Shown: positions 11,623 to 31,907 of the stretch, piece by piece
How the letters are laid out: each line of letters starts with the position of its first letter
Numbering within the stretch: the stretch's first letter is position 1
DNA from: Chitinophaga pinensis
Lineage (GTDB): Bacteria > Bacteroidota > Bacteroidia > Chitinophagales > LD1
Direction of reading: 5' to 3'
Length of the DNA stretch: 36,902 bases
Assembly: GCA_945867505.1 (NCBI GenBank)
Contig: CAMBIM010000006.1
Location: forward strand, 1 to 36,902
Position numbers and translations under genes: made by a program
The notes under the pieces: generated by a model
What the model saw: only the letters and a program-made list of their open reading frames with translations
What the model was told of the DNA's origin: nothing
Databases searched by the model: none

Positions 11623-12407
11623 TTCCGTTGTCCGTTGTCCGTTGTCCGCTGTCTGTAATATTTCAATTCCATCTTCTCTCCGTCAAACACCGCATAGCTA
11701 TAATAATCGAGCCAATCTCCGGTGTTGATGTAGCGGCTTTTTTCGTTCAACTGCACATCGAGTGGTAAATGGCGGTGGCCGAAAACAAAAAAATCGAAAC
11801 GCTCTTGCTTTAATGTGGTGCGGCAAAATTGAACCAGCCATTCTTTTTCTTCATTGGTATATGCTTCGGCTGCTTTCTTCTTTCCTTCGTTTCCAAATCT
11901 GCTTTCGAACGAAAAATAATTGGCAATACGTGCACCAATATCAGGATGCAACCAACGAAATAAAAACTGACAAACAGGATTAGAAAAAACTCTCTTTATG
12001 AATTTGTAACCATGGTCACCGGGACCTAAACCATCGCCATGACCAATGAAGAATTTCTTGCCATTAAACTCCCGTTTTATGGGTTGAGTATAAACCTTTG
12101 CACCTAACTCTTGTTCAAAATAGCCGAACATCCATAAATCGTGATTGCCGGTAAAAATGTGAACCGGTATACCGGCATCGCATAACTCTGCAATTTTTCC
12201 TTGTAATCGAACAAAACCTTTCGGTATAACGGTTTTGTATTCGTGCCAAAAATCGAAGATATCGCCAATGATGAAAATTTCGGTGGCATCACCCTTAATT
12301 TCATCAAGCCATTGCACAAATAATTTTTCGCGAGCCGCACTCGATTTTTGGTCGGGTGTGCCTAAGTGTAAATCAGAAGCGAAATAGATTTTCCCCGAAA
12401 ATGCCAT
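11619..12407 (-). CDS. lpxH: UDP-2,3-diacylglucosamine diphosphatase-like metallophosphoesterase
   Basis: The calcineurin-like phosphoesterase has 262 residues. Metal-binding motifs appear in order: SDLHLG (D12, H14), GDIFDFW (D49, D52), GNHDLW (87-92), IGHGDGLGPGD (from ~121) and FGHRHLPLD near the C-terminus. FDFWHEY after the second motif is typical of the LpxH group, which cleaves UDP-2,3-diacylglucosamine to lipid X in lipid A synthesis at the inner-membrane face. The last ~11 residues (RQRTTDNGQRK) come from a tandem 7-bp repeat and are not family sequence. The gene starts 30 bp after the LUD gene and overlaps the propeller-like gene by 4 bp. A second LpxH-like gene lies at 27110, so the true LpxH is uncertain. 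Confidence 0.85.
   Translation of the reverse strand: MAFSGKIYFASDLHLGTPDQKSSAAREKLFVQWLDEIKGDATEIFIIGDIFDFWHEYKTVIPKGFVRLQGKIAELCDAGIPVHIFTGNHDLWMFGYFEQELGAKVYTQPIKREFNGKKFFIGHGDGLGPGDHGYKFIKRVFSNPVCQFLFRWLHPDIGARIANYFSFESRFGNEGKKKAAEAYTNEEKEWLVQFCRTTLKQERFDFFVFGHRHLPLDVQLNEKSRYINTGDWLDYYSYAVFDGEKMELKYYRQRTTDNGQRK
11625..11656. repeat. tandem 7-bp repeat CCGTTGT at the end of the LpxH-like gene
   Basis: Units are CCGTTGT at 11625-11631, 11632-11638 and 11639-11645, then CCGCTGT at 11646-11652 and a partial CTGT. It encodes the C-terminal tail of the LpxH-like protein and forms the ribosome-approach region of the propeller-like gene. Confidence 0.85.
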
Positions 12408-20555: not shown

Positions 20556-21026
20556 ATGGCGGTATATTTTCAAAACACACTACTGGCATCTGGCGATTTT
20601 ATACGCATTACCCGCAAGTATTCATCTCCACAAAGTTTAAGCCGCGCGCGCAAACGGGGCACGGCTCATATAGTAGCTATTGGCAGAATGCGGTTTGCGC
20701 ATACCACGCCCGAACAAGTGGCAGCTTTTCATGCTATTGGTTCGTGGCAAAACTTACAGGTAATAACCGAGGTGCCGGGTGGCTTAAGTTCGTTAAACAG
20801 CATCAGCAAAAAAATAGGGGTGGGCGAAGCGCAACTAATAAGTTGGGCTGTGTTCAACCGTATAGATGTTTACTGGATAGGCGGAACTTTTTTTGGCAAC
20901 CAGCAACTGCTAAAGGCAATTGCCGATGGTGAGGACCAAAGAATGAATTCGTTTAACAAGAAGACCAAGAAACAATTAGAGGAGATGTATAGAAAGCAAT
21001 TCGCACATATACTTAAGCAACCGTAA
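20556..21026 (+). CDS. protein of unknown function
   Basis: The 156-residue product has no signal peptide or clear membrane segment and no recognised domain. It is basic at the N-terminus (RITRKYSSPQSLSRARKRG), has a central globular-looking part (AHIVAIGRMRFAHTTPEQVAAFHAIG, SLNSISKKIGVGEAQLISWAVF) and a Lys/Glu-rich C-terminal helix. A competing frame (20501-20932) overlaps it, but this frame has more protein-like composition and an ATG. It is flanked by repeats on both sides (20348-20550 and 21030-21349), so it could be recently acquired or a fast-evolving gene. No function is proposed. Confidence 0.5.
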   Translation: MAVYFQNTLLASGDFIRITRKYSSPQSLSRARKRGTAHIVAIGRMRFAHTTPEQVAAFHAIGSWQNLQVITEVPGGLSSLNSISKKIGVGEAQLISWAVFNRIDVYWIGGTFFGNQQLLKAIADGEDQRMNSFNKKTKKQLEEMYRKQFAHILKQP

Positions 21027-21029
21027 AAG

Positions 21030-21074
21030 GGCAATTTTTATAATAAATGCCTTTCTTTCTTCTATAAAATTGCC
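21030..21074 (+). terminator. AT-rich hairpin 3 bp after the unknown gene
   Basis: GGCAATTTTTATA (21030-21042) pairs with TATAAAATTGCC (21063-21074), twelve pairs with one bulge and a 20-nt loop rich in CTTT. There is no terminal T-tract, so the terminator role is tentative. Confidence 0.4.
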
Positions 21075-21097
21075 ATTTACCTTACCAATTAGGCCTT

Positions 21098-21349
21098 TTG
21101 CAGGTCGTAAAGGGCAATAACGGAATTCTGATATATACCTTGCAGACTTGAAAGGTTAATAACAGAATCCTGATATGTGCCAGCCTGACCGGAAAGGACT
21201 ATAACTGAATTCTGTTAGTTACCTGTCACACCTGCAAGGATAATAAGGGAATTCTCACATATACCTGACAGGTCAGAAAAGATGATAATAGAAACCCCAC
21301 ATTAACCTGCGCGACCTGCAAACTGGCTATTTGGAACCGATTATTTGCA
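21098..21349. repeat. degenerate tandem array, six units with exact 42-bp period
   Basis: Units are 21098-21139, 21140-21181, 21182-21223, 21224-21265, 21266-21307 and a weaker sixth at 21308-21349 that enters the GH3 stop region. Shared columns are an AAAGG word near unit positions 13-17, ATAA near 20-23, GAAT near 26-29 and terminal ACC/GCC. Units differ at many sites but keep length without any indel. This array fills most of the ~300-bp gap (21027-21326) between the convergent unknown gene and GH3 gene; nothing else is seen there except the hairpin at 21030. Confidence 0.85.
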
Positions 21350-23531
21350 AAGTATGAGTAAGCATTTGTGTGCTGCGCGAAGAATTACCAACCAGAACTT
21401 CATACTTGCCTTTATCTATACCCCAAGCATTAATGTCGGGATAGAAAAACTCTAAATCTTTCCGACTGAAGGTAAATTCTACTTGGCGCTCTTCGTTTGG
21501 CTCTAAATAAATCTTGCTGAAGCCGCGCAATAGTTTTTCCGGTCGCTCCTCTTTAGTTTCAGGAAAGACGATATACAACTGTACTACTTCTGCACCGGCT
21601 CTGGCTCCGGTGTTTTTAATCTTTACAGAAACATTTACTGTTTCAGAAACCTGTGAGGTTTGTAAATCAGAAATCTGAAACTGCGTATAGCTCAAACCAT
21701 AACCGAAAGGATAGCGCGGCTGCTTGTCCTCCGCTGGCGGAGGTGTTCCGCTGCTTTGAGCGGAACGGAGGTGGTTAAGCTCATACTTATCAAAAAGCGT
21801 GTAGCCATGATAGTAACCGTAATCAACCGCAGTATCGAAAGAATTAAACGGAGGCAAATCGCTTTCTAATTTCGGAACGGTGAAAGGCAATTTGCCGCTT
21901 GGGTTTACATCGCCAAATAAAATACGCGCCAGTGCATTGCCGCCTTCCATACCGTTGTAGAAAGTTTCGATAATAGCCGAAACTTCTTCGCGCCATTCTT
22001 CTACCGTAACAGCACTGCCCGCTACCAAGCTCACCACAATGTTTTTGTTTACCGAAGCAGCGGCATGTATTACATCAATATCCCGCTGATGCAAATGCAG
22101 GTATTCTCTATCGCCACCTACACCCAATATACCGGTGCGGGTAATAAAGTTTTTCTTATCGGGGTTTTTCTTATCGCGAATTTGCCCGTTGCCGATAAAC
22201 TCGCCTTCGTCTTTATAGGTAGTGCCGGAAATCACAATTACAGCATCTGCTCCTCCGCATATTTTTTTTACTGAATCGACATTATTGGTGGTGGTGACAA
22301 TCTCTACACCGGTTCCGGCAAAATAATTCTTAATGCCATCGAGCGGAGAAACAATGTAAGTCGGAAACACGCGGCTGCTGCCGTGGTCGCCTGTTTGTTT
22401 TACATCCGCCAGCGAGCCTATTACGGCAATGCGTTTTATTTTTTCTTTATGAAGAGGAAGGAAGGAGTTGTCGTTCTTCAATAACACGGCACTCTTCTCG
22501 GCCACTTCGCGCGCTAAATCGGTATGCGCTTTACAACCCGCTAAACTTTTAGGATACTGCTGCACATCTTTCTGCGAAGCATAAAATAACTTGGTGCAGA
22601 TGATGGGCAAAACCAAATCATCAATTTGTTGCTCTTTAATCTTACCATCTGCCAATAATTTTTTGATGGTAGAAAGTTTGTAGATAGTGTTGCTTGGCAT
22701 TTCAATATTCATACCGGCTTCAATTCCTTTTTGCGCATCGTAAAGTCCGTTCTGCCAATCGCTGGTTATATAACCTTTAAAGCCCCATTGGTTGCGCAGA
22801 ATATCGGTCAGCAGCAATTTGCTGTGCCCGCAGTATTCGCCATTCAGTTTATTGTACGCGCTCATTACCGAAGCCGCGCCCCGCTCTATTACTTTTTTAA
22901 AATGCGGAAGGTAAACCTCGTGCAGCGTGCGCTCATCCATGTTCATGGTGCCGCCAAACCGGTTGTTCTCCATGCTGTTGGCGGCAAAGTGTTTTACACA
23001 AGCCTGCACATTGTGTTTCTGAATTCCCTCCACCAAAGCCGAAGCCATTTCGCCTACATGGTGCGGGTCTTCGCCATACGTTTCCTGCGCTCTACCCCAA
23101 GCCGGATGGCGCAATAAATTCATACACACTGCACCGCTGTAGTTAGCGCCCAAGGCGCGGATTTCTTCTGCCATGGCTTCGCCAACACGCTTTTCCAAAT
23201 CAACATCCCAACTGGCTCCACGCGCCATGGTAACCGGAAAAGCTGTGGTGCCTTTAGTTAAACTAACCCCTCGCGGACCATCTAAAAATATAGTGGAAGA
23301 AATTCCTAAGCGTTTACTGCCACCTGCATGTACCGGTTTTATTTTTTTAGAAAAGAGGATAGACAAGCCGAAACGTACCACGCCATGTCCGTGCATTTCG
23401 TACACCTTTTCTTTTAAACTCATTTGCGCAATAAGTGCGCGGGCGGTGGTGTCGGCTTCTTGTGCTGTCATGGTTTGTGCGGTTGAAGTGGTAGCGGTAA
23501 ATAATAAGAATAGTGGGATAATACGAAACAT
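21327..23531 (-). CDS. glycoside hydrolase family 3 beta-glucosidase-like enzyme
   Basis: The 734-residue protein starts with a signal peptide (FRIIPLFLLFTATTSTAQ) and is probably periplasmic. The N-terminal TIM-barrel domain contains FLDGPRGV, FPVTMARGASWD, GRAQETYGEDP, CVKHFAANS and GYITSDW, whose D258 is the predicted nucleophile. The (alpha/beta)6 domain includes VLLKNDNSFLPL and IAVIGSLAD, and a fibronectin-III-like domain closes the protein (VKIKNTGARAGAEVVQLYI). It resembles BglX-type enzymes cleaving beta-glucosides or beta-xylosides from oligosaccharides. Just before YPFGYGLSYTQF it carries ~16 extra residues (HLRSAQSSGTPPPAED, ~586-602) encoded by a palindromic element. No SusC/SusD neighbours are present, so it is not part of a polysaccharide-utilisation locus here. 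Confidence 0.92.
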   Translation of the reverse strand: MFRIIPLFLLFTATTSTAQTMTAQEADTTARALIAQMSLKEKVYEMHGHGVVRFGLSILFSKKIKPVHAGGSKRLGISSTIFLDGPRGVSLTKGTTAFPVTMARGASWDVDLEKRVGEAMAEEIRALGANYSGAVCMNLLRHPAWGRAQETYGEDPHHVGEMASALVEGIQKHNVQACVKHFAANSMENNRFGGTMNMDERTLHEVYLPHFKKVIERGAASVMSAYNKLNGEYCGHSKLLLTDILRNQWGFKGYITSDWQNGLYDAQKGIEAGMNIEMPSNTIYKLSTIKKLLADGKIKEQQIDDLVLPIICTKLFYASQKDVQQYPKSLAGCKAHTDLAREVAEKSAVLLKNDNSFLPLHKEKIKRIAVIGSLADVKQTGDHGSSRVFPTYIVSPLDGIKNYFAGTGVEIVTTTNNVDSVKKICGGADAVIVISGTTYKDEGEFIGNGQIRDKKNPDKKNFITRTGILGVGGDREYLHLHQRDIDVIHAAASVNKNIVVSLVAGSAVTVEEWREEVSAIIETFYNGMEGGNALARILFGDVNPSGKLPFTVPKLESDLPPFNSFDTAVDYGYYHGYTLFDKYELNHLRSAQSSGTPPPAEDKQPRYPFGYGLSYTQFQISDLQTSQVSETVNVSVKIKNTGARAGAEVVQLYIVFPETKEERPEKLLRGFSKIYLEPNEERQVEFTFSRKDLEFFYPDINAWGIDKGKYEVLVGNSSRSTQMLTHTLQIIGSK
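21727..21774. repeat. double-hairpin palindromic element inside the GH3 gene
   Basis: CCTCCGC (21728-21734) pairs with GCGGAGG (21737-21743) and GTTCCGCT (21745-21752) pairs with AGCGGAAC (21759-21766), both perfect. GGAGGTGG follows (21767-21774). The 48-bp length is a multiple of three and leaves the GH3 frame open. Confidence 0.85.
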
Positions 23532-23604: not shown

Positions 23605-23997
23605 ATGAAAAAGCAATTTGTATTCGCTGTTATCTGTTGTCTGCTTTCTGTTGTCAGCAAGGCACAGCAACCGCTTCCTGTTAAAACCTACCTCATTATG
23701 CGCGACTCTACCACCAGTATGGATATAGTAATGATGCAGGGCAAAGGCGGTAGCATGAGCCTGGATGGACGCAACGTAAAATTGTTCAATAATCTTTTCG
23801 AAAACAAAACGGCTGCTAAGTTCAACTCACCACTTGGCGGCAACATGATGTGGTTAATAAACGGAAGAGAATTTATTTCAGGCAATTACTTTCTTGGGGA
23901 TAGCAATGGCTATATCGTTTTTCAAAAAGATGGAAAGGAATACGTAAACCTGATAAACGCACAAGGCAATTCATTTTTTAAAGGACAGATAAAGTAG
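23605..23997 (+). CDS. small secreted protein of unknown function
   Basis: The 130-residue protein has an N-terminal signal peptide (QFVFAVICCLLSVVSKAQ, cleavage predicted after KAQ). The mature ~110 residues contain short strand-like segments (TYLIMRDSTTSMDIVMMQGKGG, SMSLDGRNVKLFNNLFENKT, GNMMWLINGREFISGNYFLGDSNG). I recognise no family. Part of the signal peptide is encoded by a GACAACAGAC-type repeat (23627-23655). It is divergent from the GH3 gene and 6 bp upstream of yajQ, so it may be co-transcribed with yajQ. Confidence 0.7.
   Translation: MKKQFVFAVICCLLSVVSKAQQPLPVKTYLIMRDSTTSMDIVMMQGKGGSMSLDGRNVKLFNNLFENKTAAKFNSPLGGNMMWLINGREFISGNYFLGDSNGYIVFQKDGKEYVNLINAQGNSFFKGQIK
23627..23655 (+). 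repeat. CTGTTGTCTG-type dispersed repeat inside a signal-peptide coding region
   Basis: The run contains CTGTTATCTGTTGTCTGC then TTTCTGTTGTC, a close relative of the runs at 11565-11593 and, in reverse complement, 30388-30416. It encodes VICCLLSVVS of the signal peptide. Confidence 0.5.
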
Positions 23998-30381: not shown

Positions 30382-31907
30382 TGAATAGACGACAGACAAC
30401 AGACGGCAGACAACAGAAAATACATCACGCCCTTTTGTGCTTGTTATTTGCGATGTACTATTCACCACTTGCTGCGCAATACATTACCCACGGCCCTGTA
30501 ATTGGCGCAGTTAGTTCTTCTTCTTGCAAAGTTTATATCCGTACTAAACAATGCGGAAAAATTTTGATGGAGTTAAGCCAAACGCCCGATTTGCAAAAAG
30601 CATTTTCGGTAGCTGGTGTTACCGATAGTTTGCACGATAAAAGCGTTATGCTTCAAATCTCTTCGCTAAATGCAAATACAAAATACTACTACCGGTTACT
30701 TTTTGAAGGAAGAGAAGATGTAGTAAAAGGAAGTTTTAGAACCTTTCCTGCCGAAGGGGCAAAAGGCGATTACAGTTTTGTAACCGGTAGCTGTCAGGAA
30801 ACCGAAAACATGAAAGTGTTTGAAGCCATGCCTAAAAACGACCCTTACTTTATAATGCACACTGGGGATTTTACTTACCCAGATTATATGATTGCGCGCA
30901 ATTATGCCGCCACACAAGAAGGGATAGACAGCAGCTACCGCAGACGTTACAACGAGAAAGTAATGAAGCAAATGCTTTACAACTTACCTATAGATTATGT
31001 GTTTGACGATGATGATTATGTGGGTGCCAGCGCGGGCAGATATTGCACTAACGATTTAGTTTCGAAACGAGTGAATGGCAAAATTACGTATACCATGCCG
31101 GCCGATACTTTCCCTGCCTTATGGCGCAGCAACGTAATTAAAGGCTATGCCGATTATTTTCCGCACTACCAATTACCGGATACTAACGAAGGCATTTTCC
31201 ATTCCTTCAAATTTGGCAACGCAGAATTTTTTGTAATTGACCGCAATAGCGCAAAAGATGCACCCGATAGCGATGTGTTTCGCTACAACGCCCAAAAGCA
31301 CAAGTGGTATTTTGCTCCAGATTCAACTATGGCTTTGTTTGGCAAAAAGCAAATGGATTGGTTGAAGACATCTATCAAAAATTCTACAGCCGATTGGAAA
31401 TTTATTGTAAGCGGTGTGCCGCTAAACGGTGCCTGCGAAAAACTAATTCAGGCGGGAGTGAAAATTCAGAAACTGCATTATAAAGAGTGGTATGGTTTCC
31501 ATCTCGCCAGCGGCTTTGGGCATTATTGGGCAGGCTTTCCATACGAGCGCAACGACTTTGTGAGTTTTGTAAAACAGAATAACATTAAAAATGTGTTGGT
31601 TATTAGTGGCGACACACACCATTGCGTAATGGACGATGGCAAAAATTCAGATTTCCCCGAAATGAATGCCAGCGGGTTGAGCGTATCTACTACCGAATTA
31701 GCTAAATACATAAAACTAATTGGCAACGGCTTTGGGCTTTACCATTTTAAAAAAATATGGAACAAAGGCGGCATAGGCATAACTACCAAGGAATGTAAAA
31801 ACGGTTTCGGCAAAGTGCGCATTGTGGGCAGCGACTATGTGGAGTTGAGCATTATTGATGAAGACAACAAGACCATTAGCAGTTTCAATGTGCCGTTTAA
31901 AAAGTAA
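30381..31907 (+). CDS. PhoD-like alkaline phosphatase/phosphodiesterase
   Basis: The 508-residue secreted protein has a signal peptide after a basic N-region (HHALLCLLFAMYYSPLAAQ). An N-terminal Fn3/Ig-like domain (ITHGPVIGAVSSSSCKVYIR) is followed by a metallophosphatase domain of the PhoD type: FVTGSCQE, IMHTGDFTYPDY, YVFDDDDYVGASAG, a KQMDWLKTSI segment and VISGDTHHCVMDD. PhoD enzymes release phosphate from mono- and diesters using Ca2+ and Fe3+. The start ATG shares a base with the TonB receptor stop. The first ~12 codons contain a repeat (30388-30416, encoding RRQTTDGRQQ). Co-expression with the receptor suggests a phosphate-scavenging or ligand-processing pair. Confidence 0.87.
   Translation: MNRRQTTDGRQQKIHHALLCLLFAMYYSPLAAQYITHGPVIGAVSSSSCKVYIRTKQCGKILMELSQTPDLQKAFSVAGVTDSLHDKSVMLQISSLNANTKYYYRLLFEGREDVVKGSFRTFPAEGAKGDYSFVTGSCQETENMKVFEAMPKNDPYFIMHTGDFTYPDYMIARNYAATQEGIDSSYRRRYNEKVMKQMLYNLPIDYVFDDDDYVGASAGRYCTNDLVSKRVNGKITYTMPADTFPALWRSNVIKGYADYFPHYQLPDTNEGIFHSFKFGNAEFFVIDRNSAKDAPDSDVFRYNAQKHKWYFAPDSTMALFGKKQMDWLKTSIKNSTADWKFIVSGVPLNGACEKLIQAGVKIQKLHYKEWYGFHLASGFGHYWAGFPYERNDFVSFVKQNNIKNVLVISGDTHHCVMDDGKNSDFPEMNASGLSVSTTELAKYIKLIGNGFGLYHFKKIWNKGGIGITTKECKNGFGKVRIVGSDYVELSIIDEDNKTISSFNVPFKK
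30388..30416 (+). repeat. GACAACAGAC-type dispersed repeat at the start of the PhoD-like gene
   Basis: The run GACGACAGACAACAGACGGC followed by AGACAACAG is built of AGAC/GACAACAG words. It encodes RRQTTDGRQQ in front of the signal peptide. It is the reverse-complement relative of the runs at 11565-11593 (as coded) and 23627-23655. Confidence 0.6.

What the first reader, a model, noticed from the sequence alone, without database searches (positions are those of the whole stretch)
21098..21349. Six-unit degenerate tandem array with an indel-free 42-bp period between convergent genes
Unit boundaries, marked by ACC or GCC, fall at 21137, 21179, 21221, 21263 and 21305, exactly 42 bp apart. Units share only part of their bases, yet none has gained or lost a base. 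Two explanations fit. First, 42 bp is 14 codons: the minus strand reads GIYQNSVIALYDLQ, GTYQDSVINLSSLQ and then decayed copies with stops in units 3 and 5, as if a 14-residue repeat protein had died here. Second, 42 bp is four helical turns, which would place a bound protein on one face of the DNA. Unit starts (ACCTGACAGGTC, ACCTGTCACACCTG) also look palindromic. The last unit runs into the GH3 stop codon. It is not a CRISPR because there are no identical repeats alternating with unique spacers.
Basis: partly seen in the sequence, partly recalled or inferred. Interest (0 to 1): 0.72.

Follow-up and report, generated by a model that had tools for sequence, protein, structure and literature searches.

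The report
Alternating 21-base repeats between genes

Summary
The array is real: lag-42 identity is 63% against 19-30% at neighbouring lags, and it is by far the strongest periodicity in the window. The 42-bp unit is composite. It resolves into eleven 21-bp units (21105-21335) in strictly alternating orientation, with dyad centres every 21 bp. It is not a dead repeat protein (stops in every frame, no codon-position bias). It is not unique either. In sampled genomes of the same genus, 27 of 34 intergenic arrays have periods that are exact multiples of 21, and almost every locus has its own sequence. Four relatives carry a 42-bp dyad-symmetric array directly 3' of the same gene; unit identity there has fallen to 42-64%, yet the arrays stay in phase. 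This is the little-understood class of 'constant size, variable sequence' bacterial tandem repeats (20-21 and 52 nt) of Subirana and Messeguer, which they linked to two helical turns. What appears new is the alternating-orientation form, the statistical dyad symmetry, the cross-species persistence of spacing without sequence, and this host group. The best explanation, inferred, is a helically phased DNA platform for a dimeric architectural or topological protein at transcript ends. Length-restricted slippage and RNA hairpins remain possible.

The parts
21105..21335 (.). Array of eleven 21-bp units in strictly alternating orientation (apparent period 42 bp); consensus TCTGnAAGGTnnATAACAGAA
   Evidence: opposite-orientation units are 53% identical when inverted and 25% when read directly; lag 42 is 63% identical
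21105..21125 (+). 21-mer unit 1
21126..21146 (-). 21-mer unit 2
21147..21167 (+). 21-mer unit 3
21168..21188 (-). 21-mer unit 4
21189..21209 (+). 21-mer unit 5
21210..21230 (-). 21-mer unit 6
21231..21251 (+). 21-mer unit 7
21252..21272 (-). 21-mer unit 8
21273..21293 (+). 21-mer unit 9
21294..21314 (-). 21-mer unit 10
21315..21335 (+). 21-mer unit 11, most decayed; overlaps the GH3 stop codon (21327-21329) and the codons before it
20556..21026 (+). Flanking gene, 156-aa protein of unknown family; orthologues in four relatives also have a 42-bp array directly 3'
21026..21078 (+). Inverted repeat (13-bp arms, 92% complementary) between the 156-aa gene and the array; a possible separate 3'-end hairpin
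   Evidence: the terminator scan did not score it
21327..23531 (-). Convergent flanking gene, glycoside hydrolase family 3 protein
   Evidence: Pfam GH3 N, GH3 C and Fn3-like

Best explanation
Shown: the feature is one member of a genus-wide class of intergenic arrays built from a 21-bp module, repeated head to tail (period 21) or in alternating orientation (period 42, with a dyad every 21 bp). Module length and often dyad symmetry are kept; sequence is not. Inferred: the array works at the DNA level as a helically phased platform. Each dyad offers a two-fold symmetric site, and 21-bp spacing puts all sites on one face of the helix. A dimeric, weakly sequence-specific architectural or topological protein (an HU-type nucleoid protein or gyrase, by analogy with E. 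coli BIMEs) could then line up along the array between transcription-unit ends. Selection would keep spacing and symmetry and purge indels, while bases drift and slippage adds or removes units.
For: Alternating 21-mer anatomy. Within 21n arrays identity peaks only at 21, 42 and 63 (0.55, 0.67, 0.53 against about 0.27), with no heptad signal. 27 of 34 intergenic arrays are at exact multiples of 21, and intergenic autocorrelation peaks at 21, 42, 63, 84, 105 and 126. 18 of 27 21n arrays are palindromic against column shuffles (p <= 0.03). Five orthologous arrays behind one gene are all 42-bp and palindromic (p < 0.002) with unit identity 42-64%. About 438 substitutions with phase kept gives P(no indel) = 1.6e-4 even at 0.02 indels per substitution. 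Wobble (GT:AC) counts match composition, 155:145 against 156:144, so there is no RNA signature. Arrays favour convergent gaps (p = 0.035) and avoid divergent ones (p = 0.028). The 21-mer is not dispersed, so geometry rather than a word is shared.
Against: No binding protein is identified and no motif is shared among loci. About a third of the arrays show no significant dyad symmetry. Exceptions of 20, 28, 41, 44, 60 and 104 bp occur. Some genus members have none or few arrays (G006, G014, G015), so they are dispensable. The orientation bias is modest and rests on a home-made gene finder. Four of the five array-rich genomes were sampled because they matched this locus. The indel argument assumes decay from a once homogeneous array, and its indel ratio is an assumption.
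Confidence: 0.4

Rival explanations
1. Mutational minisatellite: arrays are born by slippage or template switching that favours 21-bp steps (helically phased loops or strand-switching hairpins give inverted copies) and then decay neutrally. No function is needed.
For: Arrays span all ages, from nearly identical units (L067, L054) to about 50% identity or less, each with its own sequence. Presence is patchy between close relatives. Strand-switch errors naturally create inverted copies (general knowledge).
Against: Neutral decay at 42-64% unit identity should have brought indels at the five orthologous loci, yet phase is kept. The location is non-random. Slippage on its own has no reason to choose 21.
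Confidence: 0.33
2. RNA element: the transcribed array folds into hairpins (3' mRNA stabiliser, bidirectional terminator, or sponge/small RNA).
For: Both strands fold better than shuffles (z = -4.8 and -4.4). Arrays lie between convergent genes more often than expected. Tandem repeats of constant size are transcribed in B. coagulans (PMC8161180, PMC8625621).
Against: Any DNA palindrome folds on both strands. There is no excess of GT over AC at paired positions, no clear excess of pairing within a unit over pairing between units, no terminator call in the array, and no Rfam match.
Confidence: 0.2
3. Remnant of a 14-residue repeat protein.
For: 42 bp is 14 codons, and one minus-strand frame stays open over two units.
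Against: Stops in all frames, no codon-position bias (p = 0.95), no coding signal, no Pfam match to the read-through. The 21-bp units alternate in strand, which a protein repeat gives no reason for.
Confidence: 0.01
4. REP/BIME-type mobile palindromes spread by a RAYT transposase.
For: Palindromic units in alternating orientation, extragenic, and a preference for transcript ends resemble BIMEs (PMC2817692, PMC3733652). Y1 transposases occur in 17 of 18 genus genomes.
Against: No dispersed copies: the 21-mer pattern is at control level outside the locus and blastn finds no paralogue. Y1 transposases are equally present in array-free genomes.
Confidence: 0.03

Closest known systems
Constant-size, variable-sequence tandem repeats of bacteria (20-21 nt and 52 nt; Subirana and Messeguer, J Bacteriol 2020 (not readable here); PMC8161180)
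   Same: Noncoding, many loci per genome, one constant unit length (20-21 nt) with unrelated sequences, patchy between related species; the authors suggest a nucleoid or RNA role and note that 20-21 nt equals two helical turns
   Different: Here the host is a freshwater Bacteroidetes genus; many arrays appear as 42-mers because 21-mers alternate in orientation; dyad symmetry is shown statistically; orthologous arrays keep spacing across species after losing sequence; many arrays are too degenerate for the strict satellite definition
BIME/REP elements (PMC2817692, PMC3733652)
   Same: Palindromic units in alternating orientation, extragenic, at transcript ends; BIME-2 binds gyrase
   Different: REPs share one sequence in >100 copies and depend on RAYTs; here nothing is shared between loci
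BrickBuilt minisatellite within a MITE of Porphyromonas gingivalis (PMC4596501; only the start of its abstract was read)
   Same: Short tandem units in a Bacteroidetes genome
   Different: BrickBuilt lies in a MITE, a transposable element; this array has no related copies elsewhere in its genome

Membership tests
Constant-size, variable-sequence tandem repeats (20-21 nt class) | Unit length of 20-21 nt, or a simple multiple of it | tested here: met
   21-mer module; 27 of 34 arrays at multiples of 21
Constant-size, variable-sequence tandem repeats (20-21 nt class) | Several loci per genome with the same unit length and unrelated sequence | tested here: met
Constant-size, variable-sequence tandem repeats (20-21 nt class) | Noncoding | tested here: met
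Constant-size, variable-sequence tandem repeats (20-21 nt class) | Short characteristic sequence present in most arrays of one species (reported for some Bacillus species, not used as the definition) | tested here: not met
   No 5- or 6-mer stands clear of column shuffles across the arrays
REP/BIME | One sequence family dispersed in many copies | tested here: not met
REP/BIME | Cognate RAYT transposase whose presence tracks the repeats | tested here: not met
   Y1 transposases in 17 of 18 genomes, with or without arrays
REP/BIME | Palindromic units in alternating orientation | tested here: met
CRISPR | Near-identical repeats separated by unique spacers | tested here: not met
   Degenerate contiguous units without spacers
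Repeat-protein gene or pseudogene | Open frame or codon-position bias in substitutions | tested here: not met
Gyrase- or HU-binding platform (works like) | Protein bound in phase with the units | not testable with these tools
   Needs footprinting or ChIP

The most novel reading that the evidence does not exclude
The genus keeps a geometry rather than a sequence: intergenic platforms whose only conserved properties are a 21-bp (two-turn) step and two-fold symmetry, maintained by selection across species after sequence similarity is largely gone, as docking arrays for a protein that reads DNA phase and symmetry rather than bases.
Probability: 0.25. Interest if true: 0.8.

Novelty: new variant of a known kind. 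Interest (0 to 1): 0.52.

Why it matters
Tandem repeats of constant length but free sequence were reported in bacteria without an explanation. Here the 21-bp step is resolved into an oriented module with dyads one step apart, and one locus can be followed through five species. That makes the open question testable: does the cell select spacing and symmetry, or does the replication machinery stutter in two-turn steps? If spacing is selected, intergenic DNA would carry an architectural code that sequence alignment does not see.

Tried and rejected
Dead repeat protein: rejected. Known RNA family: none. CRISPR: rejected on anatomy. REP/BIME: rejected for lack of dispersion and of RAYT tracking. 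Heptamer origin (21 = 3 x 7): rejected, lag 7 and lag 14 are near background inside the arrays. Local compensatory pairing within units: an apparent excess is explained by choosing the best phase, and overall same-unit pairing is not clearly better than cross-unit pairing. The 156-aa neighbour as the maker of the arrays: it first seemed confined to array-bearing genomes, but G004 and G008 have arrays without it; its fold prediction was uninformative (pLDDT 45). A shared array motif: none. In one search the half-unit test for L070 is unreliable (its dyad appears to fall on a base, so halves are off by one) and is not used.

Full report
Observation. The 42-bp array is present at the stated place. 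Lag-42 identity is 63% over the stated range, all other lags tested are at 19-30%, and no other periodicity in the 36.9-kb window comes near it. The array ends at about 21335, inside the last codons of the convergent GH3 gene.

Anatomy. Folding the array on its own profile gives one strong dyad (score 22.5 against 15.0 for the next centre; column-shuffled null 15.6, 0 of 200 shuffles as good). Cutting at the dyad centres, 21104.5 + 21k, resolves the array into eleven 21-mers that alternate in strand. Opposite-strand units are 53% identical when inverted and 25% (background) when read in the same direction. The consensus is TCTGnAAGGTnnATAACAGAA. The 42-bp period is thus two inverted 21-mers, which speaks against the coding reading, since a protein repeat gives no reason for strand alternation. 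Codon-position bias is absent (p = 0.95), the coding score is at noncoding level, and all frames have stops.

Not alone. No other copy of the sequence exists in the genome. In sampled stretches of the same genome and relatives, however, intergenic autocorrelation peaks at 21, 42, 63, 84, 105 and 126. An ungapped search for any period from 15 to 130 found 34 intergenic arrays, of which 27 sit at exact multiples of 21 (21 x10, 42 x12, 63 x2, 84 x2, 126 x1); the others are 20, 28, 41 (twice), 44, 60 and 104; shuffled sequence gives about 0.3. Inside 21n arrays identity is 0.55, 0.67 and 0.53 at lags 21, 42 and 63, and near background elsewhere, including lags 7 and 14. Arrays come as direct 21-mers or as alternating 21-mers. 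Seven have little or no direct lag-21 similarity, and six of these are palindromic. Overall 18 of 27 are palindromic at p <= 0.03. Array sequences are mostly unrelated between loci. Sampling caveat: G003, G009, G016 and G017 were chosen because they matched this locus. In G006, G014 and G015 (80-180 kb each) no 21n arrays were seen; G004 and G008 have a few; genomes outside the genus show little signal in small samples. The named relatives are lake and bog Bacteroidetes MAGs (the habitat is read from isolate names).

One locus through five species. The 156-aa gene next to the array has orthologues in G003, G009, G016 and G017 (G017 with an internal stop) and a decayed one in G006. In all four plus the window a 42-bp array follows directly 3' of it, although in G009 and G016 other sequence lies between the array and GH3. 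All five arrays are palindromic (p < 0.002). Mean unit identity within each (G000, G003, G016, G009, G017) is 0.64, 0.42, 0.53, 0.57 and 0.47. The window profile is related to those of G003, G016 and G009 (none of 300 shuffles as good) but not clearly to G017's (p = 0.13). So the arrays share ancestry in most cases, and the period outlives the sequence. About 438 substitutions without loss of phase would be improbable under neutral decay even at 0.02 indels per substitution (1.6e-4; 3e-10 at 0.05). The indel ratio and the homogeneous starting array are assumptions.

DNA or RNA. Both strands fold well, as any DNA palindrome must. If RNA pairing were selected, GT pairs should exceed AC mismatches on the sense strand. 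They do not: 155:145 against 156:144 expected (this count includes convergent arrays, for which the sense strand is arbitrary; summing only the codirectional rows of the same output gives 79:68 against about 77:70). No terminator is called in the array. A separate 13-bp inverted repeat lies between the 156-aa gene and the array.

Where they sit. Of 37 arrays with both neighbours, 20 are codirectional, 12 convergent and 5 divergent. Against gaps of at least 150 bp this is an excess of convergent (p = 0.035) and a deficit of divergent sites (p = 0.028).

Mechanism. I favour a DNA-level platform: dyads 21 bp apart face the same side of the helix and could dock a row of dimeric architectural or topological proteins between transcription units, as gyrase binds BIME-2 (PMC2817692). 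Spacing, symmetry and location are shown; the protein and the function are inferred. Length-restricted slippage followed by decay is the main rival; it explains the locus-specific sequences well but not the indel-free old arrays.

Known kind. Subirana and Messeguer described bacterial tandem repeats of constant size (20-21 or 52 nt) and variable sequence, noncoding, patchy among species, of unknown role, and noted that 20-21 nt equals two helical turns (PMC8161180; overview PMC6749651; their 2020 J Bacteriol paper is not held). This array and its kin belong there, apart from a shared short motif, which I did not find. In the texts I could read, the alternating-orientation 42-mer form, the dyad statistics and the cross-species persistence are not described, though they note that short sequences and their reverse often occur in the same 52-nt repeat. 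Hence a new variant of a known kind.

Noticed in passing
window 11624-11653, 23627-23655, 30387-30417: Short heptanucleotide arrays (TCCGTTG, CTGTTGT, AGACAAC units, about 4 copies each) at or near gene ends; many similar heptamer arrays occur in the relatives. They show no link to the 21-mers.
   Followed up: partly
window 20556-21026: A 156-aa protein without Pfam or NCBIfam match, found in only six of 61 genomes searched, decayed or interrupted in two, with a basic C-terminal tail in two orthologues (KRKKRR).
   Followed up: partly
L188:16745-17228 (G008): A 480-bp array of about eleven 42-bp units (GCAAAACGGACTTGTGTTTTGC hairpin-like core) between convergent genes in a genome with few other arrays.
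   Followed up: no
L191:15570-15859 (G004) and L057:4999-5295 (G009): Clean arrays with a 41-bp period, the commonest exception to the 21n rule; 41 bp is still close to four helical turns.
   Followed up: no
L089:7401-7950 (G006): Intergenic array of a 227-bp unit (2.4 copies), unrelated to the 21-bp class, in a genome where that class was not seen.
   Followed up: no
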